Assembly (NCBI GenBank): GCA_025998755.1
Contig: AP024674.1
Location: 372,001-436,000, forward strand
Direction of reading: 5' to 3'
Length of the DNA: 64,000 bases
Source: Armatimonadota bacterium
GTDB lineage: Bacteria > Armatimonadota > UBA5829 > DSUL01
The translations under genes were made by a program, and so were the position numbers. Shown piece by piece: positions 6,758 to 21,762 of the stretch; the first letter of the stretch is position 1, and the number at the start of each line of letters is the position of its first letter. The notes under the pieces are model-generated. The model ran no database searches and had not been told where the DNA came from. It worked only from the letters and a program-made list of their open reading frames with translations.

Positions 6758-7039
6758 ATGCTTGCGGTGGATGAGAAACCACACGACGTCCAGAATATCG
6801 ATGAGTTGTCTGCCCACCTGAAGATACAGAAATCGACGATTTACACGCTCGTTCGGGAAGGCAAAGTCCCTTGCCAGAAGATTGGCTACCATTGGCGCTT
6901 CCCGAAGGAAGCGCCGGGTGGCTGGTTGAAAAAGCTACCAGGGCTCTTGCAACAGGGAGGAAACAGGTATTGTCAGAGCGCTTGGCGGATCAGGTCCTGC
7001 GAAAGATCGGCGAGGCTCGCGATCTCTATTACCGGCTGA
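6758..7039 (+). CDS. Excisionase-like helix-turn-helix protein
   Basis: The 93-aa frame holds a complete excisionase/MerR-type HTH at about residues 14-55: IDELSAHLKIQKSTIYTLVR, then EGKVPCQKIGYHWRFPKE and a WLKK end. Such domains bind DNA in Xis proteins and in small regulators of defence operons. Here it is the first gene after the tRNA and directly precedes brxF, so a regulator of the BREX operon is the most likely role. The last 38 residues have no HTH character and overlap brxF by 70 bp, so the true stop may have been lost by an indel near 6910-6930. Confidence 0.7.
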   Translation: MLAVDEKPHDVQNIDELSAHLKIQKSTIYTLVREGKVPCQKIGYHWRFPKEAPGGWLKKLPGLLQQGGNRYCQSAWRIRSCERSARLAISITG

Positions 7040-7446
7040 TCCTGATGGTGGGCCCTGCGGGAAGCGGGAAGACATCCGCGTTGCAGGAGGTATCGGCCTC
7101 GACCTCCGCTCCGCTCGTCAACGTCAATCTCCAGCTGTCTCGCCGAATGCTCGACCTGACCGAACGCCAACGGGCTCTGCAGCTGCCGCGGCTCTTGGGC
7201 GAAATCGTGGCTGAGGCCACAGGCGAGCTGGTTTTGCTCGACAACATCGAGATCCTTTTCGATGTCCACCTGAAGCATGATCCTTTGCGTCTGCTTCAGG
7301 GATTGTCCCGAAACAAGACGGTCGTGGCCGCATGGAAAGGCCTTATCGTGGATGGTCACATAACCTATGCCGTCCTGGACCACCCCGAATACCGCCGCTA
7401 CCTGATTCGCGATTTTCTGGTGGCCAGTCCGGAGATGAAGACATGA
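6970..7446 (+). CDS. brxF: BREX-3 P-loop protein BrxF
   Basis: BrxF is a small P-loop ATPase found in type 3 BREX phage-exclusion systems. The protein has 158 aa if started at the TTG at 6970, which has an excellent GGGAGG site 9 bp upstream; the frame is open to 6871 but that part overlaps the HTH domain. Walker A GPAGSGKT is at residues 28-35, and a Walker-B-like [11 protein letters not shown] lies near residue 86. The C-terminal half ([24 protein letters not shown]) has the family look. brxC starts 37 bp downstream. Confidence 0.85.
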
Positions 7447-7483: not shown

Positions 7484-10400
7484 ATGAAATACAAAGACCT
7501 GATCCAGTTTGAGGCTATCGAGTCCGTAGTCCAGCTACGGGATGCCGATGAGGCCACGAGCGCCAGACAGTTGGTCAGCACCTACGTCATCTCCGACGAG
7601 ATGGCCGAGCGGCTAACCTGCATCGCGATTCCCAATCTCCAGTTCGACCAGCCCGCGGACAACAAAGGGCTTTTGGTCGTGGGCAACTACGGCACCGGTA
7701 AGTCGCACCTGATGTCGGTGATCTCCGCTATCTGCGAGCACGCGGACCTGCTTTCCGCCCTGAGCAACGCACAGGTGGCACAAGCCGCGGAGCGGATCGC
7801 CGGCAAGTTCAAGGTGGTCCGCACCGAGATCGGGTCCGCGCTCATGTCGCTACGGGACTTCCTCGTGGGCGAGCTGCAGGAAGCGCTCACCGCCATGGGC
7901 GTGACCTACACCTTTCCGGATGCCAGCCAGGTCCGCAACTACAAGCGGGCCTTCGAGGAGATGATGGCCGCGTTCCATCAGGAGTATCCGGACCATGGCC
8001 TGCTCCTGGTCGTGGATGAGCTACTGGACTATCTCAGCAGCCGCAATGACCAGCAGCTGATCCTCGACCTCATTTTCCTCCGTGAGGTGGGCGAGTCTTG
8101 CCGTTACCTGCGCTTCCGCTTCGTGGCAGGTGTGCAGGAGGCCATCTTCGACAGCAACCGTTTCGCCTTCGTGGCCGACAGCATCCGCCGGGTCAAGGAC
8201 CGGTTCGAACAGGTCCTTATCGCCCGCAAGGACGTGAAGTTCGTCGTCGCCGAGCGGCTGCTCAAGAAAACCGGCGAGCAGCAGGCCAAGATCCGCCAGT
8301 ACCTCACACCGTTCGCCAAGTTCTACGGCCACATGAACGAGCGGATGGACGAGTTCGTCCGCCTCTTCCCGGTTCATCCCGACTACATCGACACCTTCGA
8401 GCGCATCACGGCGGTGGAGAAGCGCGAGGTGCTCAAGACTCTGTCGCTGGCCATGAAGAAGCTGCTCGACCAGGAGGTGCCGGAGGACCGGCCCGGTCTC
8501 ATCTCCTACGACAGCTACTGGACGAACCTGCGCGAAAATCCCTCCTTCCGCGCCGCCCCAGACATCAAGGAGGTGATCGATTGCAGCCAGGTGCTGGAGT
8601 CCCGGATCGAGCATGCCTTCACCCGGCCGGCGTACAAGCCCCTGGCGCTCCGCATCATCCACGCGCTCTCGGTCCACCGGCTGACGACCGGAGACATCTA
8701 CGCACCCCTGGGCGCCACGGCCGAAGAACTCCGCGACGCGCTCTGTCTCTACCAGCCCGGCATCGAGGACCTGGGCGGAGACCCGGCCGACGACCTCTTG
8801 TCCCTGGTGGAAACTGTCCTAGGCGAGATCAAAAAAACGATGAGCGGCCAGTTCATCTCCTTTAACGAGCAGAACCGGCAGTTCTATCTGGATCTCAAGA
8901 AGACCCATGATTTCGACACGCTCATCAAGAATCGCGCCGAGAGCCTCGATGACTCCCGGCTCGACCGCTGCTACTACGAGGTCCTGAAACAGGTCATGGA
9001 GTGCACCGACCAGACCTACGTCCCCGGTTACAAGATCTGGCAGCATGAGCTGGAATGGCTGGAGCACAAGGTGACAAGACAAGGATATCTCTTCTTCGGC
9101 GCTCCAAACGAGCGCTCAACGGCCGTGCCGACCCGTGATTTCTACCTCTACTTCATCCAGCCGTTCGATCCACCGCACTTCAAGGACGAGAAAAAGGCGG
9201 ATGAAGTGTTCTTCCGCCTTAAGGGCAGGGATGAGGAATTCGATCAGAATCTACGCTTTTACGCAGCTGCCCTAGATCTTGCGTCCACCTCGAGCGGCTC
9301 CGACAAAGCCACCTATGAGTCCAAGGCCAAGGGATTCCTCCAGGACCTCGTGGGCTGGCTGCAGGAGCACATGACCGATGCCTTCGAAGTGACCTACCAG
9401 GGACGCACCAAGTCGCTGGTTGAATGGGCCAAGGGCAAGTCCATCCGCGAGCTGTCCGGGATCGCCTCCCACGAGCGGATCAACTTCCGCGACCTGGTGA
9501 ACACCATCGCCGGCATCGTCCTGTCCGCACACTTTCAGGACCAGGCGCGCGAGTATCCCTACTTCCCGGTGCTCATCACGGGCCAAAACCGCGAGCAGGC
9601 AGCCCAAGACGCACTGTACAGCATCGCAAAGGGCGATCGGACCAGGCAGGCAACCGCCGTGCTCAACGCCCTGGAACTCCTCGATGGCGAGAGGCTCGAT
9701 CCGTATCGCTCTAAATACGCAAATCACATCCTGAGTATCCTCAAGAAGAAAGGGCACGGGCAGGTGGTTAACCGCTCGGAGCTGATCCAGGAGGTCTACG
9801 GCGTTGAGTACTTCGCACCGGACAAGGGCTACCGTCTCGAGCCTGAATGGGTGGTGGTGCTTCTGGCCGCGCTGGTTTACTCCGGTGACCTGGTCCTTTC
9901 GATTCCCGGCAAGAAGTTCGACGCCACCGGGTTGCCGCAACTGGCTGCGACGAGCATCGACGAGCTGGTCAATTTCAAGCACATTGAGGCGCCCAAGGAC
10001 TGGAACCTGCCCGCGCTCAAGGCACTTTTCGAGCTGCTCGGGCTCACGCCGGGCATGGCGCAGCTCGTCACCCAGGGCAAGGAAGAGCCGGTCCAGCAGC
10101 TCCAGAAAGCCATCTCCGAGGTGTTGGAGAAGCTGGTGCTGGTCCAACAAAGCCTGCAAAGCGGCTTGCCGTTCTGGGGTACGAACCTGCTCGCCGAGAA
10201 GGACGTAGCCCAGCTGCGCGGGCGGCTAGACCAGACCAAGACCTTCCTGGAATCCCTGCAGGCCTACTCCACACCCGGTAAACTCAAGAACTTCCGTTAT
10301 GACGCCCAGGAAGTCAAGCGTCACGAAGACGGCTTGAGGGCCCTCTCGGAGATCCAGTCCCTGCAGGAGCTGGTGAGCGACCTGGTCCCGGTAGCCTCCT

Positions 10401-11242
10401 ATCTCTCCACCGCCGAGGCGGTGCTGCCCACGGACCACGAGTGGGTAGAGCGGATGAGAAAGGTCCGGACTGAAGTCCTCACCGCAGTCTCTAGTTATGG
10501 GTCTCGCGTCTTGGGTCAAAAAGACGCGGGACACGCAACTGGCGACCCGCGAGCCGAAATACGAGGCAAGCTCACCACCCTCAAGAAGTCATATGTGCAG
10601 GCCTATCTCGACTTGCACACCCGGGCCCGTCTGGGTGTGAACGAGGACAAGCGCAAGCAGGCAATGCTGGCCGACAAACGGCTCAAAACGCTCCGAAGCC
10701 TGTCCGCCATTGACCTGATGCCGTTGCGGCTCCTGACCCATTTCGAAAACCGACTGGCCGACTTGAAGAGCTGCTTCGTTCTCACCGAGCAGGACCTCGA
10801 AGCGTCGGCAGTCTGCCCGCATTGCCACTTCCGGCCCGGCACGGAGGCGCCTGCCGCAGATGCCGCGAAGGTGCTGGAGCACCTGGACACAGAGCTGGAC
10901 AAGCTCCTCGACGAATGGACCCAGACGCTGCTGGCCAACCTGGAGGATCCCACCACCCTTGGCAACCTCGAGCTGCTCAAGCCCGAGAAGAGGTCACTGG
11001 TGCACACATTCGTCAAGGAACAAAAGCTACCTGCCGAGATAGACCAGGAGTTCATTCATGCCCTGAACGAGGTGCTCTCCGGGCTGGTCAAGGTCGAGGT
11101 GAAAACTGAGGATCTGCGCGCAGCCCTGGTCACGGGCGGCTCACCGCTGACGCCGGAGGAGATGAAGAAACGCTTCGAGGAATACCTCCATAAACTCACC
11201 AAAGGCCATGACCCACGTAAGGTCCGGATTTTGGTGGATTAG
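7484..11242 (+). CDS. brxC: BREX-3 ATPase BrxC (DUF6079)
   Basis: BrxC is the large AAA-type ATPase that is a core component of BREX. The 1252-aa frame is uninterrupted. Walker A GNYGTGKS is at residues 67-74 and Walker [13 protein letters not shown] near residue 175. A long helical middle follows, then a C-terminal CPHCHF zinc-type motif near residue 1110. The start has an AAGGGGG site. It sits between brxF and pglX with a 9-bp gap to the latter (a GGAG site lies in the gap), so the three genes are one operon. This frame is intact while its methyltransferase partner is not. Confidence 0.93.
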
Positions 11243-11251
11243 GAGCGGCTG

Positions 11252-14200
11252 ATGGCGAATACAAGCGAAGACCACAGTCTGTTCAATCTGCTGATGCCCG
11301 CCAAGCCGCAAGGTCCGGTGGAATGCCTCGGGATGACCTTTGAAAACGACGACGCGCGTCGTGCGTACTTTCTCGACCGCTTGCGCGCCGCGCTGGAGGA
11401 ACTCCACGCCAAGCTCGGCGGTGTGCCGTTTACCACGGTGGCCGACGCCGTGGAACGGATGAAGTCGCTCACGCACTGGCCGATGGGTGATGACGCGCGC
11501 TCATCCGCTGGCCGAACGGATGCGCAAGGCCCACCGCTCGGCGTCCGCAACGACCTGCTCCGGCTCTGGAAGGATGCGGTGGGTTTCCCGCACGGTGAAA
11601 TCGAAGACATCCTGAACCTCTCCGATCCACCGTATTACACGGCGTGCCCGAACCCCTTCATCGCGGACTTCCTTGCGCACTACGGCAAACCCTACGACCC
11701 GCAGAGCGACGACTACCGGCGGGAGCCGTTTGCCGCGGACGTGAGCGAAGGCAAGAACGACCCCATCTACAACGCGCACTCCTACCATACGAAGGTGCCG
11801 CACAAGGCCATTATGCGCTACATCCTGCACTACACCCAGCCGGGCGATGTGGTGTTCGACGGCTTCTGTGGCACGGGGATGACCGGCGTGGCGGCGCAGC
11901 TCTGCGGTGACCGGAAGACGGTGGAGTCGCTGGGGTACAAGGTGGATAACGAAGGCATCATCTCCCGGCCAGAGAAGGACGAGCACGGCAAGACAGTCTG
12001 GGTACCGTTCTCGAAGCTCGGCGCGCGGCGCGCCGTCCTCAACGACCTCTCGCCGGCGGCGACCTTTATCGCCTACAACTACAACACACCGGTGGACGTG
12101 CGCGCCTTCGAGCGCGAAGCCAACCGGATTCTGAAGGAAGTGGCGGCCGAATGCGGCTGGATGTATGCCACGCTCGCTGAAGCAGGAGCGAACGAGGCGA
12201 CGAAGTGGGCCGAGAAGCTGCGCGCACGCCGCACGGCCGACGATGCGCGGGCGCTGATCGAGTCGATCCCACACCGCGGCACGATCAACTACACCGTCTG
12301 GTCTGACGTGTTCGTCTGCCCGGACTGCACCGAGGAGGTGATCTTCTGGCATGCGGCGGTGGACAAGGAGGCGGGCAAGGTGTATGACGAATTTCCCTGC
12401 CCTCACTGTGGCGCCTTGCTCACCAAGCGCAACATGGAACGCGCTTGGGTGACAACATACGACAAAGCCATCGGCCAAACCATCCGCCAGGCCAGGCAAG
12501 TGCCGGTGCTGATCAACTACAGCGTCGGTGGCAAGCGTGCTGAAAAAGAACCCGACGCCTTCGATCTGGCGCTCATTGAGAAGATCGAGGCGCTGGACAT
12601 TCCCTACTGGGTTCCGACCGACCGGATGCCGGAGGGCGAACAGTCGCGGCAGCCAACGTGCACATCGGCATCACCCACGTGCATCATTTCTACACGAAAC
12701 GGAATTTGTGGGTGTTATCTACCCTAACTGATAAAGCGGCTAAACATTCACATCAACGCCTAAATGTGTTTCTTCGATTTCTGTTTGAACAGTGGGTCAT
12801 TGGTTTCTCGTTATCTGAATAGATATTCGCCGCACCATTATTCCCAAAACAACAGGAACTTGAGCGGAACATTATATGTGGGCTCCCAGATCTCAGAGGT
12901 ATCTCCCAAATCATGCTTTTCCAGAGAAAATTAAGCGATTAGTGCGAGCCTTCTGTGCTTATATGCCAACTTCTATAAGCCTCGTAAATACCCTAGATAC
13001 ATCGATATTGATGGCAGGACCGCAATCTGTTGATTACATCTTCACCGACCCACCTTTTGGCGGCAACCTGATGTATTCCGAGCTGAACTTCCTCTGGGAA
13101 GCATGGCTCAAGGTCTTCACCAACAACACGCCTGAAGCCATCGAAAACAAGGTACAGGGCAAGGGGCTGGCGGAATACCAGCACCTGATGACCGAGTGCT
13201 TCCAGGAGTACTACCGGGTGCTCAAGCCGGGGCGCTGGATGACGGTGGAGTTTCACAACTCCAGGAACGCCGTCTGGCACGCGATCCAGGAGGCGTTACA
13301 AGCGGCCGGCTTCGTCATCGCCGACGTGCGCACGCTGGATAAGCGGCAGGGTTCGTTCAAGCAGGTCACAAGCGCCAACGCGGTCAAACAAGACCTGATC
13401 ATTTCCTGCTATAAACCGAACGGTGGGCTTGAGGAGCGTTTCCAGCGCGAAGCCGGCACTGAGGAGGGAGTCTGGGACTTCGTCCGCACCCATCTGAAGC
13501 AACTGCCGGTGTTCGTCGCCAGGGACGGCAAGGTCGAAATCATCGCCGAGCGGCTGAACTATCTGCTGTTCGACCGCATGGTGGCCTTTCACGTGCAGCG
13601 CGGGGTGATGGTGCCGCTCTCGGCTGCCGAATTCTACGCCGGTCTCGCCCAGCGCTTCCCGGAGCGCGACGGGATGTACTTTTTGCCCGATCAGGTGACG
13701 GAATACGACCGCAAACGCCTGAGCGCGAAAGAGGTGTTGCAACTGCAGATCTTCGTCACCGACGAGGCCTCGGCCATCCAGTGGCTCAAGCAGCAACTCA
13801 CCCGCAAGCCGCAGACGTTCCAGGAGCTGCACCCGCAGTTTCTCAAAGAGATCTCCGGCTGGCAGAAGCACGAAAAGCAGATCGAGCTGATGGACCTCTT
13901 GGAACAGAACTTCCTGCGCTACGACGGCCAGGGGCCGATCCCGGCGCAGATCGTCTCGTGGATGAAAAGGAGCGCCGAGCTACGCAAGTTGATTGAGAAG
14001 ACGCTTAAGGCCGGCCAGGCGACTGAGGAGAACGGCCAGCTGAGGACGCAGTCCGCGTTGCTCATTGCGCCGGCCGTCGACCGCTGGTATGTGCCTGACC
14101 CGAACAAGGCCGGCGACTTGGAGAAACTGCGCGAGCGGGCGCTGCTACGCGAGTTTGCCGAGTACCGCGAATCCAGCGCACGACGACTGAAAGAGTTCCG

Positions 14201-14360
14201 CGTCGAAGCCATCCGCGCTGGCTTCAGAAAGGCGTGGCAAGAGCGCGACTACGCCACCATTATCGCGGTGGCGCGCAAAATTCCGGAGAACATTCTGCAG
14301 GAGGATTCCAAGCTGGTCATGTGGTACGACCAGGCGCTGACCCGATCTGGGGAGGCGTAA
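11252..14360 (+). pseudogene. pglX: BREX-3 adenine-specific DNA methyltransferase PglX (PglXI), disrupted by three frameshifts
   Basis: PglX methylates host DNA so that BREX can tell self from phage. Segment 11252-12650 carries the SAM-binding motif FDGFCGTGMTG and several CPxC pairs. The frame then changes near 12650, at about 12814 (one extra T) and within 12905-12910 (CCCAAA, one extra base). Reading across gives HVHHFYTKRNLWVL, then LNRYSPHHYSQNN and GTLYVGSQ, then NHAFPEKIKRLVRAF, which are continuous family-like sequence. The catalytic motif DPPF lies in the last segment (12876-14360), so no single product holds both motifs. Bases 12721-13020 are about 42% GC by hand count, far below the flanks. 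Confidence 0.85.
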
Positions 14361-14363
14361 CCC

Positions 14364-15449
14364 ATGCCAAGGACCAAGCGGGATGTGGCGGAACTGAATA
14401 AACGCGCCATCAACTCCTTGGTGCTTGCCATTGAGCTATTCAACCGGCCGCATGACGATGGGCGGGCTGAAAGCGTTTTGATGCTGCTACACCACGCCTT
14501 CGAGATGTTGCTCAAGGCGATCATTAAAGACAAAACGGGGACCGTACATGCCAAGGGTGAGAAATACTCTTACGGTTTTGACAAGTGCCTGGAGGTAGCG
14601 CAGAACGAGATCAAAATCATCTCAGCAGACCAACGCGCTACGCTGTCGATCTTAGATGCCCTTCGGGACACTGCTGTTCACTACTACCAGGAAGTCTCCG
14701 AGGAACTTCTCTACGTTCAAGCGCAGGCTGCGGTAACTCTTTTTGACGATTTGCTTCATCGGACATTCGGCTACAGTCTCGCAGACTGTATACCTCAACG
14801 CGTGCTGCCGGTTTCCACGCGTCCGCCAAAAGATCTTCAGATGTTGATAAACAGCGAGTTGAAGCAGGTTGACGAACTCTTACTGGCTGGCAGCCGCAAG
14901 GGGATTCGGGCAGCAGCCACGTTACGCTCTATCCTCGCGTTCGCGACCGCTGCTCGTGATGACGCGGAACGCGTCACTGAGAAAGAACTACGCAAGGCAA
15001 TCCGCAGAAGGCGAAAGGGCGAAGAATGGAGCTTGATCTTACCAGAAATTGCTCAACTACGACTGGATACTCAAGGTGAAGGCATTCCGATCGATCTTCG
15101 CCTCAAGAAAAATGCTGAGGCTGCTGTACGGATAGCCAAGGAAGGAGAGCCAGTAGTCGGGACTGTGATCAAGCAGGAGATCAACATCTGGGATAAATAT
15201 AATTTGGGAAGAAATGATCTTGCTAATAAGCTCGGCATTTCTGGACCACGAACTAGTGCCCTAATAATTGAACTTGGTATTCAGGATGATCCGGAGTGCT
15301 TCAAGACACTTAGCAGGAAGTCTTCGCAGTTCAAAGGTTACAGCAAAACCGCCCTGGATAAGTTGAGGGCCGCGATTGAAGGGGGAATAGACCTCGAAGG
15401 AGTTTGGCAGAAGCATCGTCACCGGTTTGTGGGTAGGAAGCGCAAATGA
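14364..15449 (+). CDS. DUF3644-type protein inside the BREX-3 operon
   Basis: The 361-aa protein starts 3 bp after the pglX stop and its own stop overlaps the brxHII start (ATGA), so it belongs to the operon. The N-terminal third (NSLVLAIELFN, LLHHAFEMLLKAIIK, DALRDTAVHYYQEVSEE) matches my memory of DUF3644, a helical HEPN-like family often found near restriction and BREX genes. The C-terminal part has a helix-turn-helix look (NKLGISGPRTSALIIELGI), which suggests nucleic-acid binding. GC content is lower than in brxC and brxHII. It is not one of the six core BREX-3 genes, and its function is unknown. Confidence 0.65.
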   Translation: MPRTKRDVAELNKRAINSLVLAIELFNRPHDDGRAESVLMLLHHAFEMLLKAIIKDKTGTVHAKGEKYSYGFDKCLEVAQNEIKIISADQRATLSILDALRDTAVHYYQEVSEELLYVQAQAAVTLFDDLLHRTFGYSLADCIPQRVLPVSTRPPKDLQMLINSELKQVDELLLAGSRKGIRAAATLRSILAFATAARDDAERVTEKELRKAIRRRRKGEEWSLILPEIAQLRLDTQGEGIPIDLRLKKNAEAAVRIAKEGEPVVGTVIKQEINIWDKYNLGRNDLANKLGISGPRTSALIIELGIQDDPECFKTLSRKSSQFKGYSKTALDKLRAAIEGGIDLEGVWQKHRHRFVGRKRK

Positions 15450-18247
15450 CGGATAATGTTGCGCAGAATGATTGGTACTACAGCCCGGACCACGGCGGTG
15501 TCTGCCGGGTCGTCGAGACCCAGACGCTCTGGGGCGAGACGGTCTGCCGTGTCTGGCTGCCGGGCAAGGATACCGTCGTGCGCATGCCCGCCGCGCGCCT
15601 CCGGCCCGTGCAGGAGGCAAGTATTGGAACTGCGGACGGGATCGCGTATCTCGCCGCTGCGGCGCGGGTCGCAGATGCGCTGACCCAGGACGTCCTGCTT
15701 GCTCCCATCGAATCGTCCGTCATCCCGCTGCCGCATCAGATTCAAGCGCTGTCCAGGGCCATTTCCAACGACAAAGTGCGCTATCTCCTGGCGGACGAGG
15801 TGGGCCTGGGCAAGACCATCGAAGCAGGCCTGATCCTGCGGGAGCTCAAGCTCCGGGGCCTGGTGAGGCGGACCCTGGTGATCGCCCCGAAGGGCCTGGT
15901 GACCCAATGGGTAGCGGAGATGCGCACCCACTTCGGGGAGGAGTTCCGTCTGATCATCCCGAGCGACTTCTCCGCCTACCGCCGCATCGCCGATGAGGAC
16001 AACCTCTGGCAGAGCCATCCTCAGGTGATCTGTCCCATGGACTCTGTGAAGCCCTTGGGTGGACGGCGCGGCTGGTCGAGGGAACAGGTGGCCGAATACA
16101 ACCGGGAGCGCTTCGAAGACCTGATCTCCGCCGGGTGGGACCTGGTCATCGTGGATGAGGCCCATCGCCTGGGTGGGAGCACGGACCAGGTGGCCCGCTA
16201 CAGGCTGGGCAAGGGGCTGGCCTTGGCCGCGCCTTACCTGCTCCTGCTCTCCGCGACGCCGCATCAGGGCAAGACGGATGCCTTCCATCGGCTGGTCTCC
16301 CTGTTAGACGCCGAGGCCTTCCCCGACGTGAGTAGCGTGACCAAGGAGCGGGTAAAGCCCTATGTGATTCGCACAGAGAAGCGCCGCGCCATCGACGCGC
16401 AAGGCAAGCCACTTTTCAAACCCCGTCGTACTGAGCTTTATCCGGTCTCTTGGGAGGATCGCCACCGGTATCAGCGGCTGCTCTACGAGGCTGTCACCGA
16501 ATATGTGCGCGAGGGCTACAACCAGGCCTTGCGCGAGAAGCGCAGCTACATCGGATTCCTCATGATCCTGATGCAACGCCTGGTGGTCTCCAGTACCCGC
16601 GCCATCCGCACCGCCCTTGAGCGGCGCCTCGAAGCGCTTGAGGACCCACCGGAACAGCCCACACTCTTCCCGCAGCTCAGCGAGGAGGACTGGGCCGACC
16701 TGGACGGCCAGGAGCAGATGGACACGCTACTCAAGACCCAACTCAAGGCCCTGAAGAATGAACGGGCCGAGGTGAAGATGCTCCTGGAAGCGGCCAAGGG
16801 CTGCGAAAGCCAGGGCCCGGACGCCAAGGCCGAAGCGCTCCTGGAGTGGATCTACCGTCTCCAGGCCGAGGAAGGCGATCCGGATCTGAAGGTGCTGGTA
16901 TTCACCGAGTTCGTGCCGACCCAGGAGATGCTTATGCGATTCCTGACCGAGCGTGGCTTCGAGGTGGTGTGCCTCAACGGCTCCATGGACATGGAGGAGC
17001 GCAAGCGGGTCCAGGACGCATTCGCCAAGGAAGCGCGCATCCTCATTTCGACGGACGCCGGTGGTGAGGGTCTCAACCTCCAGTTCTGTCACGTGGTCAT
17101 CAACTACGACATCCCGTGGAACCCGATGCGCTTGGAACAACGCATCGGTCGAGTGGACCGCATCGGCCAGACCCACACAGTGCGCGCCATCAACTTCGTG
17201 TTCCAGGACTCGGTGGAACACCGTGTCCGCGAGGTCTTGGAGGAGAAGCTGGCGGTCATTTTTGAAGAGTTCGGCATCGACAAGACCGGTGACGTGCTCG
17301 ATTCTGTCCAGGCGGGCCAGATCTTCGATGAACTGTATGTGGAGGCCATCCTCAATCCCGATGGGGTAGAGACAAAGGTGGATGAGGTGGTGAAAGGCAT
17401 CCAGGAGCAGGTCCGGGAGTTCCGTCAGAGCGTTTCTGTGCTTGGCTCCACCGAAGGTCTGGACCCTCGCGAGGCCCAGCAGGTGCTGAACCACCCGCTC
17501 CAGCACTGGGTGGAGCGGATGACGGTTAGCTACCTGAGGGCTCACGGCGGCAAGGCTGAGAAGACCAATGACGGTTGGGATCTCACTTGGCCGAACGGTG
17601 AGCGACTCACCAATGTCGTCTTCACGAGCAAGGAGGCTGAAGAGAAGCCTTCGAGCCACCACTTGACACTGGAAGATTCCAAGGTGCGCGGCCTCGCCAC
17701 GCGCATTCCTCCATTTGCCCCGGGGCAACCGGTCCCGGTCATCACTCTTGCTGGCCTTGCGCCAGAGGTCATCGGTTTCTGGTCACTCTGGCGAATCTCG
17801 ATCTCCGCCGACCGCTCGAGCCGCCGTCGTATCATGCCTGTGTTCCTAGCCGACGACGGTCGGGTTTTTGCGCCGACTGCCCGGCGCATCTGGGATGAGC
17901 TGATGGTGACCGATCCCGAGATCCTCCGTCATCTGGATGGCGAGACCTCGCATCAAGCCTTCCAGCGACTCCGAGACGCGGCGGAAAGAATGGGGAGGAC
18001 AATCTACGAGGAGCTAGTGCAAACCCACCGGGAGCGTCTTGCTCGGGAGCGTGAGAAGGGCGAGTACGCCTTCGCTGCGCGACGCAGGGTCATCGATCGC
18101 ATCGGACTGCCCCAGGTCCGTAACCATCGCCTGAGTCTCTTGGAACGGGAGGAAGAACGCTTCCACGAACAACTCGAGCGCAGGGCCCAGATCTTGCCGG
18201 AAATGGCACCCCTGCTTCTCGTCCGCGTGGAGGGAGGCACGCTGTGA
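15446..18247 (+). CDS. brxHII: BREX-3 SNF2/DEAH helicase BrxHII
   Basis: This 933-aa superfamily 2 helicase is the motor expected in type 3 BREX. Motif I ADEVGLGKTIEAG is near residue 115, motif II VDEAHRLGG near 236, motif III LLLSATPHQGKTD follows, and motifs V-VI (STDAGGEGLNLQF, QRIGRVDRIGQ) lie at about 535-575. The C-terminal third has no catalytic motif and probably contacts partners or DNA. The frame is complete and overlaps both neighbours (ATGA with DUF3644, GTGA with the HhH-GPD gene), which shows tight operon structure. Confidence 0.93.
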   Translation: MTDNVAQNDWYYSPDHGGVCRVVETQTLWGETVCRVWLPGKDTVVRMPAARLRPVQEASIGTADGIAYLAAAARVADALTQDVLLAPIESSVIPLPHQIQALSRAISNDKVRYLLADEVGLGKTIEAGLILRELKLRGLVRRTLVIAPKGLVTQWVAEMRTHFGEEFRLIIPSDFSAYRRIADEDNLWQSHPQVICPMDSVKPLGGRRGWSREQVAEYNRERFEDLISAGWDLVIVDEAHRLGGSTDQVARYRLGKGLALAAPYLLLLSATPHQGKTDAFHRLVSLLDAEAFPDVSSVTKERVKPYVIRTEKRRAIDAQGKPLFKPRRTELYPVSWEDRHRYQRLLYEAVTEYVREGYNQALREKRSYIGFLMILMQRLVVSSTRAIRTALERRLEALEDPPEQPTLFPQLSEEDWADLDGQEQMDTLLKTQLKALKNERAEVKMLLEAAKGCESQGPDAKAEALLEWIYRLQAEEGDPDLKVLVFTEFVPTQEMLMRFLTERGFEVVCLNGSMDMEERKRVQDAFAKEARILISTDAGGEGLNLQFCHVVINYDIPWNPMRLEQRIGRVDRIGQTHTVRAINFVFQDSVEHRVREVLEEKLAVIFEEFGIDKTGDVLDSVQAGQIFDELYVEAILNPDGVETKVDEVVKGIQEQVREFRQSVSVLGSTEGLDPREAQQVLNHPLQHWVERMTVSYLRAHGGKAEKTNDGWDLTWPNGERLTNVVFTSKEAEEKPSSHHLTLEDSKVRGLATRIPPFAPGQPVPVITLAGLAPEVIGFWSLWRISISADRSSRRRIMPVFLADDGRVFAPTARRIWDELMVTDPEILRHLDGETSHQAFQRLRDAAERMGRTIYEELVQTHRERLAREREKGEYAFAARRRVIDRIGLPQVRNHRLSLLEREEERFHEQLERRAQILPEMAPLLLVRVEGGTL

Positions 18248-18975
18248 GCAGGTTCCTTCAAGAACTACGAGATCAATTGGTTAACGAAGCACAACAAAAG
18301 CTCAAGGAGCCAAAGCAGTTCATCGTCTTCACCGGAAACCACGACGCCGATAATCTGCTCAACGATTTGGACAACCACCCGCACGCATTCGTGGTCGCCT
18401 GCATCATGGACCGGCAGATCAAGACAGAAAGGGCCTGGACAATCCCCTGGGAACTAAAAGACCGGCCCGGTTCGTTTGAGATGGACTTCCTTGCCAATCT
18501 GACACAGGAAGATATCGCAGAAGCGATGGGCAAGCCAACGCCTCTTCATCGTTTCGTAGAGACGATGGCGGAAAACCTGTTTCACGGCATCCAGCGGATC
18601 ATTGAGCACTAGAACGGCGATGCAAAAGGAATATGGAGTGATTGCCCATCCGGTGCCACCATCGTGCGGCGTTTCCTGGAGTTCCGGGGAGTGGGCCAGA
18701 AGATATCCACTATGGCCGCCAACATTCTTGTGCGGGATTTTCGGATTAGCGTCAGCGACCGCTACTCGCTCGATGTCTCCGTAGATGTTCGGGTCAAGCG
18801 CGTCTTCGCTCGAATGGGGTTTATCCCAGAAAACGCTGACAGCGAGTACGTCGTCTTCCGTGCGAGAGAGCTGCATCCCGAGTACCCAGGAATCTTTGAT
18901 ATTGTTCTCTGGGAGCTCGGAGGCGAGGAGTGTCGGCCGAGAAACCCGGATTGCGGGCGGTGCCGTTTCCGGTAA
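18244..18975 (+). pseudogene. HhH-GPD endonuclease-III-like Fe-S protein, interrupted by an in-frame TAG
   Basis: Members of this superfamily are base-excision DNA glycosylases/AP lyases. The gene starts at a GTG overlapping the brxHII stop. A TAG at 18610-18612 stops it after 122 aa, yet the same frame continues for 120 more codons with clear family sequence: FRGVGQK (HhH, Lys153), LDVSVDVRV (catalytic-type Asp181) and a CX6CX2C cluster near the C-terminus. The stop replaces the position after IIEH, where a Tyr codon would fit. The fourth cluster cysteine is absent, so the tail may also be short. TAG is a normal stop elsewhere (radA, gpmA, mannosidase), so recoding is unlikely. Confidence 0.75.
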
Positions 18976-18985
18976 AACTGTGCTT

Positions 18986-21013
18986 ATGGGCGAGGGCAAA
19001 GGTGACGTGAAATCCTGGCGTGACCAAATCCTGAGTGAGTTCACACGCCAGGTCGCCCCGCTTACCCTGGTCGCGGATCCGGATGGTCTGCTCCTTGAAG
19101 AAGGTGTCCTCGAAGGAATCCGGGAACGGGGCTTTGAGCTGATGCCGTTCGAGGATCATGTCGCCTTTCGCTATGCCTACGAATCCAAGTTCCGCTCCCG
19201 CTGGGACCGTGGTGAGGAAACCGATCTGGTAGTGGTGCTGAGATCGCCGTCGAGCGATCTTGATGCCTTGCCCTACGACCTGCTGCAGGCTGGCCGCAAG
19301 CTCTCGTTCAACCTGGGCGATCTCTTCCCGAATCTCAGCTATCCCGTGGTTGCGGCGCTCGACCGCTCCTGTCTCGACGCCTTATTCCATGCGCAGACGA
19401 AGCACGCGCCGGGGCAGCTCGGTGACAACGCTACGAAGGAGTTTGTCCTTCGTTATGTATTCGAGATCGCACCGGAGCTTATCAAAGAGCCTAAGGATCT
19501 ACTCCGGGTCTTGCTGCGTCGCCACTACCAGGGCACGAGAGTTCCGCCCATCCTCGACGAGCGTTTCATCGAGTTGCTTCGCCAAAACGGCAGGTTTGAC
19601 GATTGGCCTCTGGAAGCTATCATTCCGGATCCGCAAGCATTCTTCGCGTTTCTGCAAGAGCGCTGGCCAGTGTTCCTGGATTCGCTCTCAAAGCCAAGGG
19701 ACGGTGCCGTCCTCGAAGAGGCGGCGCATTACGGCTTCAAGTTCGTCGGGCCTCCTCTATTGCCTTTTGACCACGACGATGTCCGCGTTTACGTGGTCAA
19801 CCTTTTCATCGAGGGCTTGCTCCAGCCCACTCCTCACGAGCAATCGGAATCGCTTGCCGGGAGCTGGGTGGCTTACGGCATCAACTTCTCCCCCGAAGAG
19901 AACCGCCGCCGCCGCGTGGAGGGGCTGCTGGAATCCGTTGAGAAGACGATCCCCACAGCGGATGCGCGTTATGATGAGTGGCTCCATTTGGCCTACCGGT
20001 GGGCGGAGCTTGTTGCATTGGCGCTGGAGCTGGACAGCACCCTGCCGGACGGGTGCCGGGAGCGCTTGGGGACGTTGAGATCCCGGATGGACTCGGCACT
20101 CACCGATTGGGTGATGAAGCGATACGCGAGCCTGATCAACCTTCCGCCCGCGCCGCCGGTGATGGTGCATCACATCCCGCGGTTCCTCGCCCGAAGCCTC
20201 GGAGACGACCCACACGCCAAGGTCGCTTTTCTGCTGGTGGACGGCCTCTCCCTGGACCAGTGGGTCGCCGTTCGTGAGGTGCTCGCAGAACTGGATTCGA
20301 CGCTGCGGTTCCGTGATCGCGCCGTTTTCGCTTGGATTCCCACCATCACCTCGGTTTCCCGGCAGGCCGCTTTTGCCGGCAAGCCGCCTATCTACTTTCC
20401 GGCGAGTATCCATAACACAGATAGGGAGGCAGGTCTTTGGACAAAGTTCTGGATCGATCAGGGGCTGACGCAGCACGAGGTTGCTTACGCCAAGGGGCTG
20501 GGAGACGGGGACTTGGACCAGGTCTCCGAGCTAGTGAGCCAGCCTCAGCTACGTGTCGTCGGACTGGTCATTGGCACGGTCGACCGAATCATGCACGGCA
20601 TGGAGTTGGGCTCGGTGGGCATGCACAACCAGGTTCGGCAATGGGCCAGGCGGGGACTCCTGCGGAACCTTCTCCGCCTGCTCCAGACCCAAGGTTTCCA
20701 GGTCTACCTTGCCTCGGACCATGGCAACATCGAGGCGAGAGGCGTGGGACGGCCTGACGAAGGGGCTGTCGCGGATCTGCGCGGCGAGCGCGTGCGTGTC
20801 TACTCCGATCCCAATCTCAGGGCTCAGATCAAGAAGCGATTCCCAGAGTCCTTGGAGTGGCCGTCGGTGGGTCTCCCAGAGGACTACCTCGCCCTCATCG
20901 CTCCGAACCGGGCTGCTTTTGTGCGGGCGGGTGAAACCCTCGTCGGTCATGGAGGCATTAGTGTCGAGGAACTGCTCGTCCCTCTTGTCCAGATCGATAG
21001 GAGGGACCGATGA
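18986..21013 (+). CDS. pglZ: BREX-3 alkaline-phosphatase-superfamily protein PglZ
   Basis: PglZ is the signature core gene of all BREX types. The 675-aa protein begins with a helical domain (ILSEFTRQVAPLTLVADPDG, FEDHVAFRYAYES) and ends with the phosphatase-type domain: LLVDGLSLDQW near residue 415, LASDHGNIEARG near 575 and GHGGISVEELLVPLV near 655, which keep the metal-binding D/DH/H pattern. I start at the ATG at 18986; a GTG at 19007 behind AAGGTGA is an alternative that would fit family lengths. It starts 10 bp after the Fe-S gene and its stop overlaps brxA. Confidence 0.92.
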   Translation: MGEGKGDVKSWRDQILSEFTRQVAPLTLVADPDGLLLEEGVLEGIRERGFELMPFEDHVAFRYAYESKFRSRWDRGEETDLVVVLRSPSSDLDALPYDLLQAGRKLSFNLGDLFPNLSYPVVAALDRSCLDALFHAQTKHAPGQLGDNATKEFVLRYVFEIAPELIKEPKDLLRVLLRRHYQGTRVPPILDERFIELLRQNGRFDDWPLEAIIPDPQAFFAFLQERWPVFLDSLSKPRDGAVLEEAAHYGFKFVGPPLLPFDHDDVRVYVVNLFIEGLLQPTPHEQSESLAGSWVAYGINFSPEENRRRRVEGLLESVEKTIPTADARYDEWLHLAYRWAELVALALELDSTLPDGCRERLGTLRSRMDSALTDWVMKRYASLINLPPAPPVMVHHIPRFLARSLGDDPHAKVAFLLVDGLSLDQWVAVREVLAELDSTLRFRDRAVFAWIPTITSVSRQAAFAGKPPIYFPASIHNTDREAGLWTKFWIDQGLTQHEVAYAKGLGDGDLDQVSELVSQPQLRVVGLVIGTVDRIMHGMELGSVGMHNQVRQWARRGLLRNLLRLLQTQGFQVYLASDHGNIEARGVGRPDEGAVADLRGERVRVYSDPNLRAQIKKRFPESLEWPSVGLPEDYLALIAPNRAAFVRAGETLVGHGGISVEELLVPLVQIDRRDR

Positions 21014-21762
21014 ACAGTCGCCTGACCCAGATCGGTTTCAGCCAGCGCGTCCGTCTTGAATGGCTGGAGAGAACGGCCAACCTGGTGCTTGCCGGAAACG
21101 ACGAGGCGTCCATCGAGGGAGCCCTCGAAGATCTTCTGGAAGACAAGCTGTCTGTCGGCGGGAATGCCAAACGCGGCAATCGGGAGAAGGTGATCACCAT
21201 CCTGATGAAGATCTGGGTCCGCCCCCCGCGCGACCTCCATCCCCTTCAGCGGGAAGGCCTCAAGCTTCTCTCACACCTGCCGCGTGAGGACCATATCGCG
21301 GTCCACTGGGGCATGGCCATGGCGGTTTATCCGTTCTGGGGGGCCGTAGCGGCCCATGTGGGGCGACTCCTCCGGCTCCAGGGAACGGCCGCAGCCAGCC
21401 AGGTTCAGCGCCGCGTCCGGGAGCAATATGGGGAACGCGAAACGGTATCCAGGGCGGCACGACGGGTGCTGCGGAGCTTCGTCGATTGGGAGGTCCTGAA
21501 GGAAACATCGGCAAAAGGCATCTACACCTCCGGGCTTTCACTCGCCATAGCTCAGGTGGAGGTTAGCGCGTGGTTGGCCGAGGCCTTGTTGCACGCTCAC
21601 CCCAATGGTTCGGTGCCTTTGAGAACTGTCTTTGATTCCACGAGCCTGTTTCCTTTCCGTGTCCGCCCAATGTCCGCCAACCACCTGGTCGCGGTGTCCG
21701 AGCGGCTTGAAGCGCTGCGACACGGCCTTGATCAGGACTTGGTCATGTTGAAGAAACACTAG
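21010..21762 (+). CDS. brxA: BrxA-like protein (DUF1819 type) of BREX-3
   Basis: BrxA is a small helical, DNA-binding core protein of BREX loci. The 250-aa frame starts inside the pglZ stop (ATGA). The domain plan fits: an N-terminal helix pair (WLERTANLVLAGNDEASIEG, ALEDLLEDKLS), a central NREKVITILMKIW segment, VHWGMAMAVYPFWGAVAAHV, and a winged-helix-like RRVLRSFVDWEVL. Sequence divergence from type 1 BrxA is large, so the call rests mainly on position as the last gene of the operon. The frame is intact. Confidence 0.75.
   Translation: MNSRLTQIGFSQRVRLEWLERTANLVLAGNDEASIEGALEDLLEDKLSVGGNAKRGNREKVITILMKIWVRPPRDLHPLQREGLKLLSHLPREDHIAVHWGMAMAVYPFWGAVAAHVGRLLRLQGTAAASQVQRRVREQYGERETVSRAARRVLRSFVDWEVLKETSAKGIYTSGLSLAIAQVEVSAWLAEALLHAHPNGSVPLRTVFDSTSLFPFRVRPMSANHLVAVSERLEALRHGLDQDLVMLKKH

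What the first reader, a model, noticed from the sequence alone, without database searches (positions are those of the whole stretch)
12640..12912. Three frameshifts split PglX exactly between its SAM-binding and catalytic motifs
Reading frames change near 12650, at about 12814 (extra T) and in CCCAAA at 12905-12910. Corrected reading gives continuous family-like sequence, so the ancestral gene was whole. FCGTGMTG stays in the first product and DPPF in the last. In type 1 BREX, loss of PglX removes methylation and defence, so this system is probably silent. Natural split methyltransferases exist (for example M.AquI), so a two-part enzyme cannot be fully excluded.
Basis: seen in the sequence. 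Interest (0 to 1): 0.7.

Follow-up and report, generated by a model that had tools for sequence, protein, structure and literature searches.

The report
Broken swappable specificity module in BREX methyltransferase
A bacterial anti-phage (BREX type 3) operon carries a DNA-methylating enzyme whose gene is broken by three frameshifts, all at or inside the one segment that relatives swap between phyla and that probably decides which DNA word is marked, so this copy is probably dead although its neighbouring genes are intact.

Summary
The three frameshifts are real in the assembly (+2 at about 12652, +1 at 12815, an extra C rather than T, and +1 at about 12912), shown against an intact relative in Hydrogenophilus thiooxidans. 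The locus is a type 3 BREX operon, not type 1: BrxF, BrxC, PglXI, DUF3644, BrxH, PglZ, BrxA. All its other genes are in frame. The frameshifts start at the left border of, and fall in, a distinct block (about 12706-13031, residues 481-588). It is AT-rich (GC about 0.42 against 0.60) and hypervariable (pairwise identity 0.16-0.43 over most of it, against mostly 0.6-0.9 in the flanks, among 25 relatives). It is inherited independently of the rest of the gene: AU tests reject the backbone as the history of four of six cassette groups tested, one linking a Methanosarcina, a spirochaete, Hydrogenophilus and this genome. It lies inside the insert that a 2026 paper named as the type 3 target recognition domain. 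Best reading: a horizontally exchanged specificity cassette, here broken; about 86 residues are in neither product, so a working two-part enzyme is unlikely. Clustered assembly error remains possible but is disfavoured. Ordinary gene death; the cassette exchange is the more interesting part.

The parts
11252..12727 (+). PglXI first ORF: N-terminal region, SAM-binding FCGTGMTG, 4-Cys zinc finger; leaves frame at about 12652 and stops at 12727
   Evidence: (PDLC02541 positions 3-371)
12876..14360 (+). PglXI last ORF: DPPF catalytic motif and C-terminal region; in family frame only from about 12912
   Evidence: (PDLC02541 positions 459-918)
12706..13031 (+). hypervariable, AT-rich, exchanged block (residues 481-588 of the L004 protein): proposed specificity cassette
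12652..12653 (+). frameshift 1 (+2 against L004), in the junction just before the cassette
12815..12815 (+). frameshift 2 (+1, extra C)
12910..12913 (+). frameshift 3 (+1), exact base ambiguous
11500..11538 (+). compensated frameshift pair (-2, then +8) in a linker absent from most relatives
11864..11887 (+). FCGTGMTG, methyltransferase motif I (SAM binding)
   Evidence: invariant columns F201, G203, G205, M206
12317..12409 (+). four-cysteine zinc-finger segment (C352, C355, C379, C382, invariant in 43 relatives)
   Evidence: named in PMC12839542
13047..13058 (+). DPPF, methyltransferase motif IV (catalytic)
6871..7446 (+). BrxF (type 3 BREX P-loop protein), intact
   Evidence: NF033453
7484..11242 (+). 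BrxC / DUF6079 ATPase, intact
14364..15449 (+). DUF3644 protein (PDC-S19), accessory gene; no counterpart between pglX and brxH in L004
15446..18247 (+). BrxH SNF2/RapA-type helicase, intact
18785..21013 (+). PglZ (type 3), intact; homology to L004 begins near 19010, so the true start is probably there
   Evidence: (NF033449)
21010..21762 (+). BrxA, intact

Best explanation
pglXI of a type 3 BREX operon in a probable Armatimonadota chromosome is a pseudogene broken at and inside its specificity module. The enzyme has conserved SAM-binding and catalytic parts and, between the zinc finger and DPPF, a segment of about 108 residues that relatives exchange as a unit by recombination, probably through conserved borders (HHFYTKRN on the left, YIFTDPPFGGNLMYSE on the right). 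By position it belongs to the target recognition domain, so swapping it should change the methylated DNA word. Here that segment, shared with Hydrogenophilus, is broken by three frameshifts; the N product loses it, the C product lacks its first two thirds, and no sequence-specific methyltransferase is made. Shown: operon type, frameshifts, hypervariability, base composition, incongruent history. Inferred: that the segment reads DNA, and that the break abolishes methylation and defence.
For: Operon assignment. Frameshifts against intact L004. Other BREX genes intact. Hypervariable block with sharp borders among 25 relatives. Own base composition: amino-acid-matched third-position GC 0.236 below the rest of the gene, in 24 of 25 relatives (p 1.8e-7), with no significant deficit in three other variable stretches. 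Cassettes shared across lineages against the backbone: AU on the backbone rejects {WIN, L004, L005, L081} p 1.6e-64, {L006, L020} p 0.006, {L022, L076} p 0.0008, {L009, L025, L074} p 1e-4; on the cassette {L076, L081} is rejected p 8e-57, although the backbone joins them at 99. Window and L004 differ least in this block: lower synonymous divergence than 99.4% of 505 equal windows in the operon. Insert-TRD of type 3 enzymes: PMC12839542. No second full pglXI in the genome.
Against: No reads were available, so local assembly error cannot be excluded; one ABC gene elsewhere is also broken. Two of six cassette groups are not rejected on the backbone (p 0.125 and 0.109), a seventh was not finished, and the backbone trees are quick trees. 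The structure model is mediocre (pLDDT 74.6, pTM 0.51), so the DNA-facing role is not shown. The rest of the insert, zinc finger included, may also contribute to specificity.
Confidence: 0.72

Rival explanations
1. The frameshifts are consensus errors of the assembly in a stretch of low or mixed coverage, and the real gene is intact with the Hydrogenophilus-like cassette.
For: Three indels in about 260 bases while the protein, with shifts allowed for, differs from L004 by few residues (dN 0.018 in the block); the genome may be assembled from an environmental sample (a relative in its class is a bin); one other broken gene was seen.
Against: One break in about 43 kb of sampled conserved domains against five shifts in 3.1 kb here; the indels are not in homopolymers and two have substitutions beside them; all neighbouring genes are intact.
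Confidence: 0.2
2. A natural two-part methyltransferase: the N product brings SAM binding and the C product brings catalysis, as in M.AquI.
For: Both ORFs are long and open and the break lies between motif I and motif IV.
Against: Residues about 462-547, most of the variable block, are absent from both products; among the relatives covered over the whole gene none shows a conserved split here, and the one break near the same place (L079) is an inserted transposase-like gene.
Confidence: 0.04
3. The hypervariable block is not a specificity domain but a fast-evolving surface under attack by phage anti-BREX proteins, and exchange spreads escape variants.
For: Hypervariability and exchange fit any arms-race surface.
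Against: Its place between motif I and motif IV, after the zinc finger of the published insert-TRD, is where alpha-type enzymes hold their recognition domain; such domains are the classical exchanged parts of methyltransferases (PMC3983042, PMC3077401).
Confidence: 0.1

Closest known systems
Type 3 BREX, BrxXI/PglXI methyltransferase (PMC12839542)
   Same: Same gene set (BrxF, BrxC, PglXI, SNF2-type BrxH, PglZ_3, BrxA), same motif order, same 4-Cys zinc finger in the insert between motif I and DPPF.
   Different: Gene broken by three frameshifts; the passages of that paper I read describe the insert-TRD but no exchange of a sub-block, and here the variation is concentrated in the last third of the insert.
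Target-recognition-domain exchange in R-M systems of Helicobacter pylori (PMC3983042, PMC3077401)
   Same: A specificity module moves by recombination between conserved flanks.
   Different: There within one species and in other enzyme classes; here between phyla and between archaea and bacteria, in a BREX enzyme.
L004, type 3 BREX of Hydrogenophilus thiooxidans
   Same: Intact PglXI with the same cassette, 97% protein identity in the cassette, 88% in the backbone.
   Different: Open reading frame; no DUF3644 gene between pglX and brxH; about 1.9 kb of other DNA between brxC and pglX.
CcrM (6pbd) and other N6/N4 methyltransferases of PF01555
   Same: Both halves match one PF01555 model, and CcrM is the best solved relative.
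   Different: Motif order is circularly permuted in PglXI (FxGxG first, DPPF last).

Membership tests
Type 3 BREX system | BrxF present | tested here: met
   NF033453 195.7 bits over cut-off 50
Type 3 BREX system | PglZ of the type 3 branch | tested here: met
   NF033449 888.5 bits over cut-off 250
Type 3 BREX system | BrxC/PglY-type ATPase | tested here: met
   PDLC02482 E 0, positions 1-1230 of 1231; DUF6079
Type 3 BREX system | SNF2/RapA-type BrxH helicase and BrxA | tested here: met
   PDLC02500 1636.7 bits; PDLC02444 396.9 bits
Type 3 BREX system | intact PglXI methyltransferase | tested here: not met
   split by three frameshifts; so this is a type 3 BREX locus with a broken methyltransferase gene, not a complete system
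   no BrxB or BrxL among the operon genes scanned and the methyltransferase is PglXI
Exchangeable target recognition domain | hypervariable block between conserved flanks | tested here: met
Exchangeable target recognition domain | history of the block differs from that of the rest of the gene | tested here: met
   AU tests, four of six groups rejected on the backbone, reverse test on the cassette
Exchangeable target recognition domain | exchange changes the recognised DNA word | not testable with these tools
   needs methylome data
Natural split methyltransferase (M.AquI type) | the two products together hold all conserved regions | tested here: not met
   residues about 462-547 are in neither product

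The most novel reading that the evidence does not exclude
In type 3 BREX the specificity block is a cassette that moves alone between phyla and even between archaea and bacteria, keeps its own AT-rich composition, and so reprograms an otherwise stable defence operon; a broken cassette like this one is then an off state that the next import can repair, while the rest of the operon is kept intact.
Probability: 0.25. Interest if true: 0.6.

Novelty: new member of a known kind. Interest (0 to 1): 0.42.

Why it matters
A broken methyltransferase beside intact BREX partners is an ordinary loss. More useful is what the break exposes: in type 3 BREX, for which I found no published recognition motif, sequence variation and exchange concentrate in one block of about 108 residues. 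That gives a direct, testable prediction of where the DNA word is read and a simple way to reprogram the system by swapping one block. It also explains the AT-rich patch and predicts that closely related operons carry different marks.

Tried and rejected
Plasmid search with 12600-13100 found nothing. An inserted element as cause of the AT-rich patch was rejected: it is homologous coding sequence shared with relatives. A chimera of the assembly was considered and rejected for the patch itself, because Hydrogenophilus carries the same AT-rich block in an intact gene. Programmed frameshifting was rejected: three separate shifts of +2, +1 and +1 at unlike sites. An excess of breaks in the cassette among relatives was considered: L079 has a transposase-like gene there, but the breaks in L021, L027, L030 and L054 lie elsewhere; too few to claim. 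The raw blastn gap list for the other genes is alignment noise: each stays in one frame at protein level. The fold search gave only generic methyltransferase hits.

Full report
What is there. The window carries an operon on the + strand: BrxF 6871-7446, BrxC 7484-11242, PglXI in two ORFs 11252-12727 and 12876-14360, a DUF3644 protein 14364-15449, a SNF2/RapA-type BrxH 15446-18247, PglZ 18785-21013 and BrxA 21010-21762. BrxF (NF033453) and PglZ_3 (NF033449) pass NCBI's cut-offs, so this is type 3 BREX, not type 1. The window is part of a single-contig genome of 3.29 Mb. A genome given as of the same class (G006) has a PglXI identical to that of an Armatimonadetes bin (L060), so the host is probably an Armatimonadota.

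The frameshifts. The closest relative found, L004 from Hydrogenophilus thiooxidans, has an intact PglXI of 1031 aa. Aligned to it the window has +2 at 12652-12653, +1 (a C) at 12815 and +1 at about 12912, corresponding to L004 residues about 462, 516 and 548. The N product is in frame to about residue 461 and stops at 12727; the C product is in frame from about residue 548. Residues about 462-547 are in neither. There is also a compensated pair, -2 at about 11500 and +8 at 11531-11538, in a linker that most relatives lack.

Error or decay. BrxC, BrxH, PglZ and BrxA match L004 in one frame each, BrxF and DUF3644 match their family models over nearly their whole length, and the other scanned genes of the window give no sign of broken genes. 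Across the genome, 84 copies of four domain families (about 43 kb by adding up match lengths) show one clear break, an ABC gene at 37.3-37.7 kb. Five shifts in 3.1 kb stand well above that, and none lies in a homopolymer. Local error is therefore disfavoured, not excluded.

The block. GC falls from about 0.60 to about 0.42 over 12670-13040. Among 25 PglXI relatives of the same subfamily, mean pairwise identity is 0.16-0.43 over most of residues 481-588, against mostly 0.6-0.9 in the flanks. The block is AT-rich in nearly all of them: amino-acid-matched third-position GC is lower by 0.236, in 24 of 25, p 1.8e-7, while three other variable stretches show no significant deficit. Hypervariability alone therefore does not explain the composition.

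Exchange. Cassette types cut across the gene tree. The window's type occurs in Hydrogenophilus (L004), a spirochaete bin (L005) and a Methanosarcina (L081), yet on the backbone L081 groups with L076 (99). AU tests on the backbone reject {WIN, L004, L005, L081} (p 1.6e-64), {L006, L020} (0.006), {L022, L076} (0.0008) and {L009, L025, L074} (1e-4). {WIN, L004, L005} (0.125) and {L007, L014, L031} (0.109) are not rejected, and {L010, L015, L023} was not finished. The cassette data reject {L076, L081} (p 8e-57). Between window and L004 this block has lower synonymous divergence than 99.4% of equal windows in the operon, as expected of a recent exchange, although the preceding part of pglX is also low. 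The left border sequence of the window (CAGCCAACGTGCACATC) is unlike L004's and partly like the L005 form, so a crossover may lie near the first frameshift; this is a suggestion only. L043 has two pglXI genes in tandem with different blocks.

What it probably does. PMC12839542 places the recognition domain of type 3 enzymes in an insert of about 250 residues between core strands 2 and 3, with a four-cysteine zinc finger. The four cysteines are invariant in 43 relatives (C352, C355, C379, C382). The variable block lies after them and before DPPF. Sequence variation therefore points to the last third of the insert as the part that reads DNA, while the zinc-finger part looks like a scaffold. This is inference; the AlphaFold2 model (pLDDT 74.6, pTM 0.51) is too weak to place it on DNA. 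In type 1 BREX, loss of pglX abolishes defence (PMC11341690); I found no such test for type 3.

Verdict. Observation confirmed with small corrections. Interpretation partly supported: silent gene likely, type 1 framing wrong, two-part enzyme unlikely. The broken gene is ordinary; the exchanged cassette is a known kind of thing in a system where I found no earlier report of it, within open-access papers only.

Noticed in passing
L079:5907-6968: A transposase-like gene (354 aa, looks IS630-type; not searched) lies inside the variable block of a Syntrophobacteraceae pglXI relative, a second break of this module.
   Followed up: partly
L043:874-6470: Two pglXI genes in tandem with different variable blocks in a Sedimentisphaerales bin: one operon with perhaps two specificities.
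   Followed up: partly
L064:5465-8398: Strongest composition contrast: third-position GC about 0.38 in the block against about 0.82 on both sides.
   Followed up: no
window 18248-19007: About 760 bases between BrxH and the PglZ homology start that L004 lacks; ORF 18244-18612 has no Pfam match.
   Followed up: partly
L004:3465-5308: About 1.9 kb of other DNA between brxC and pglX in Hydrogenophilus, content not examined.
   Followed up: no
G000:C1:37291-37706: An ABC transporter ATPase gene split into two frames: the only other break seen in the domain sample of the host genome.
   Followed up: no
window 6758-7039: Small HTH_17 protein upstream of brxF with a weak match to MAD1 of the methylation-associated defence system; possible operon regulator.
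   Followed up: no
L005:6037-6220, L065:11232-11490, L068:8883-9333, L074:15058-15352: Partial extra pglXI fragments downstream of the full gene in several relatives, possible leftovers of duplication or recombination.
   Followed up: no
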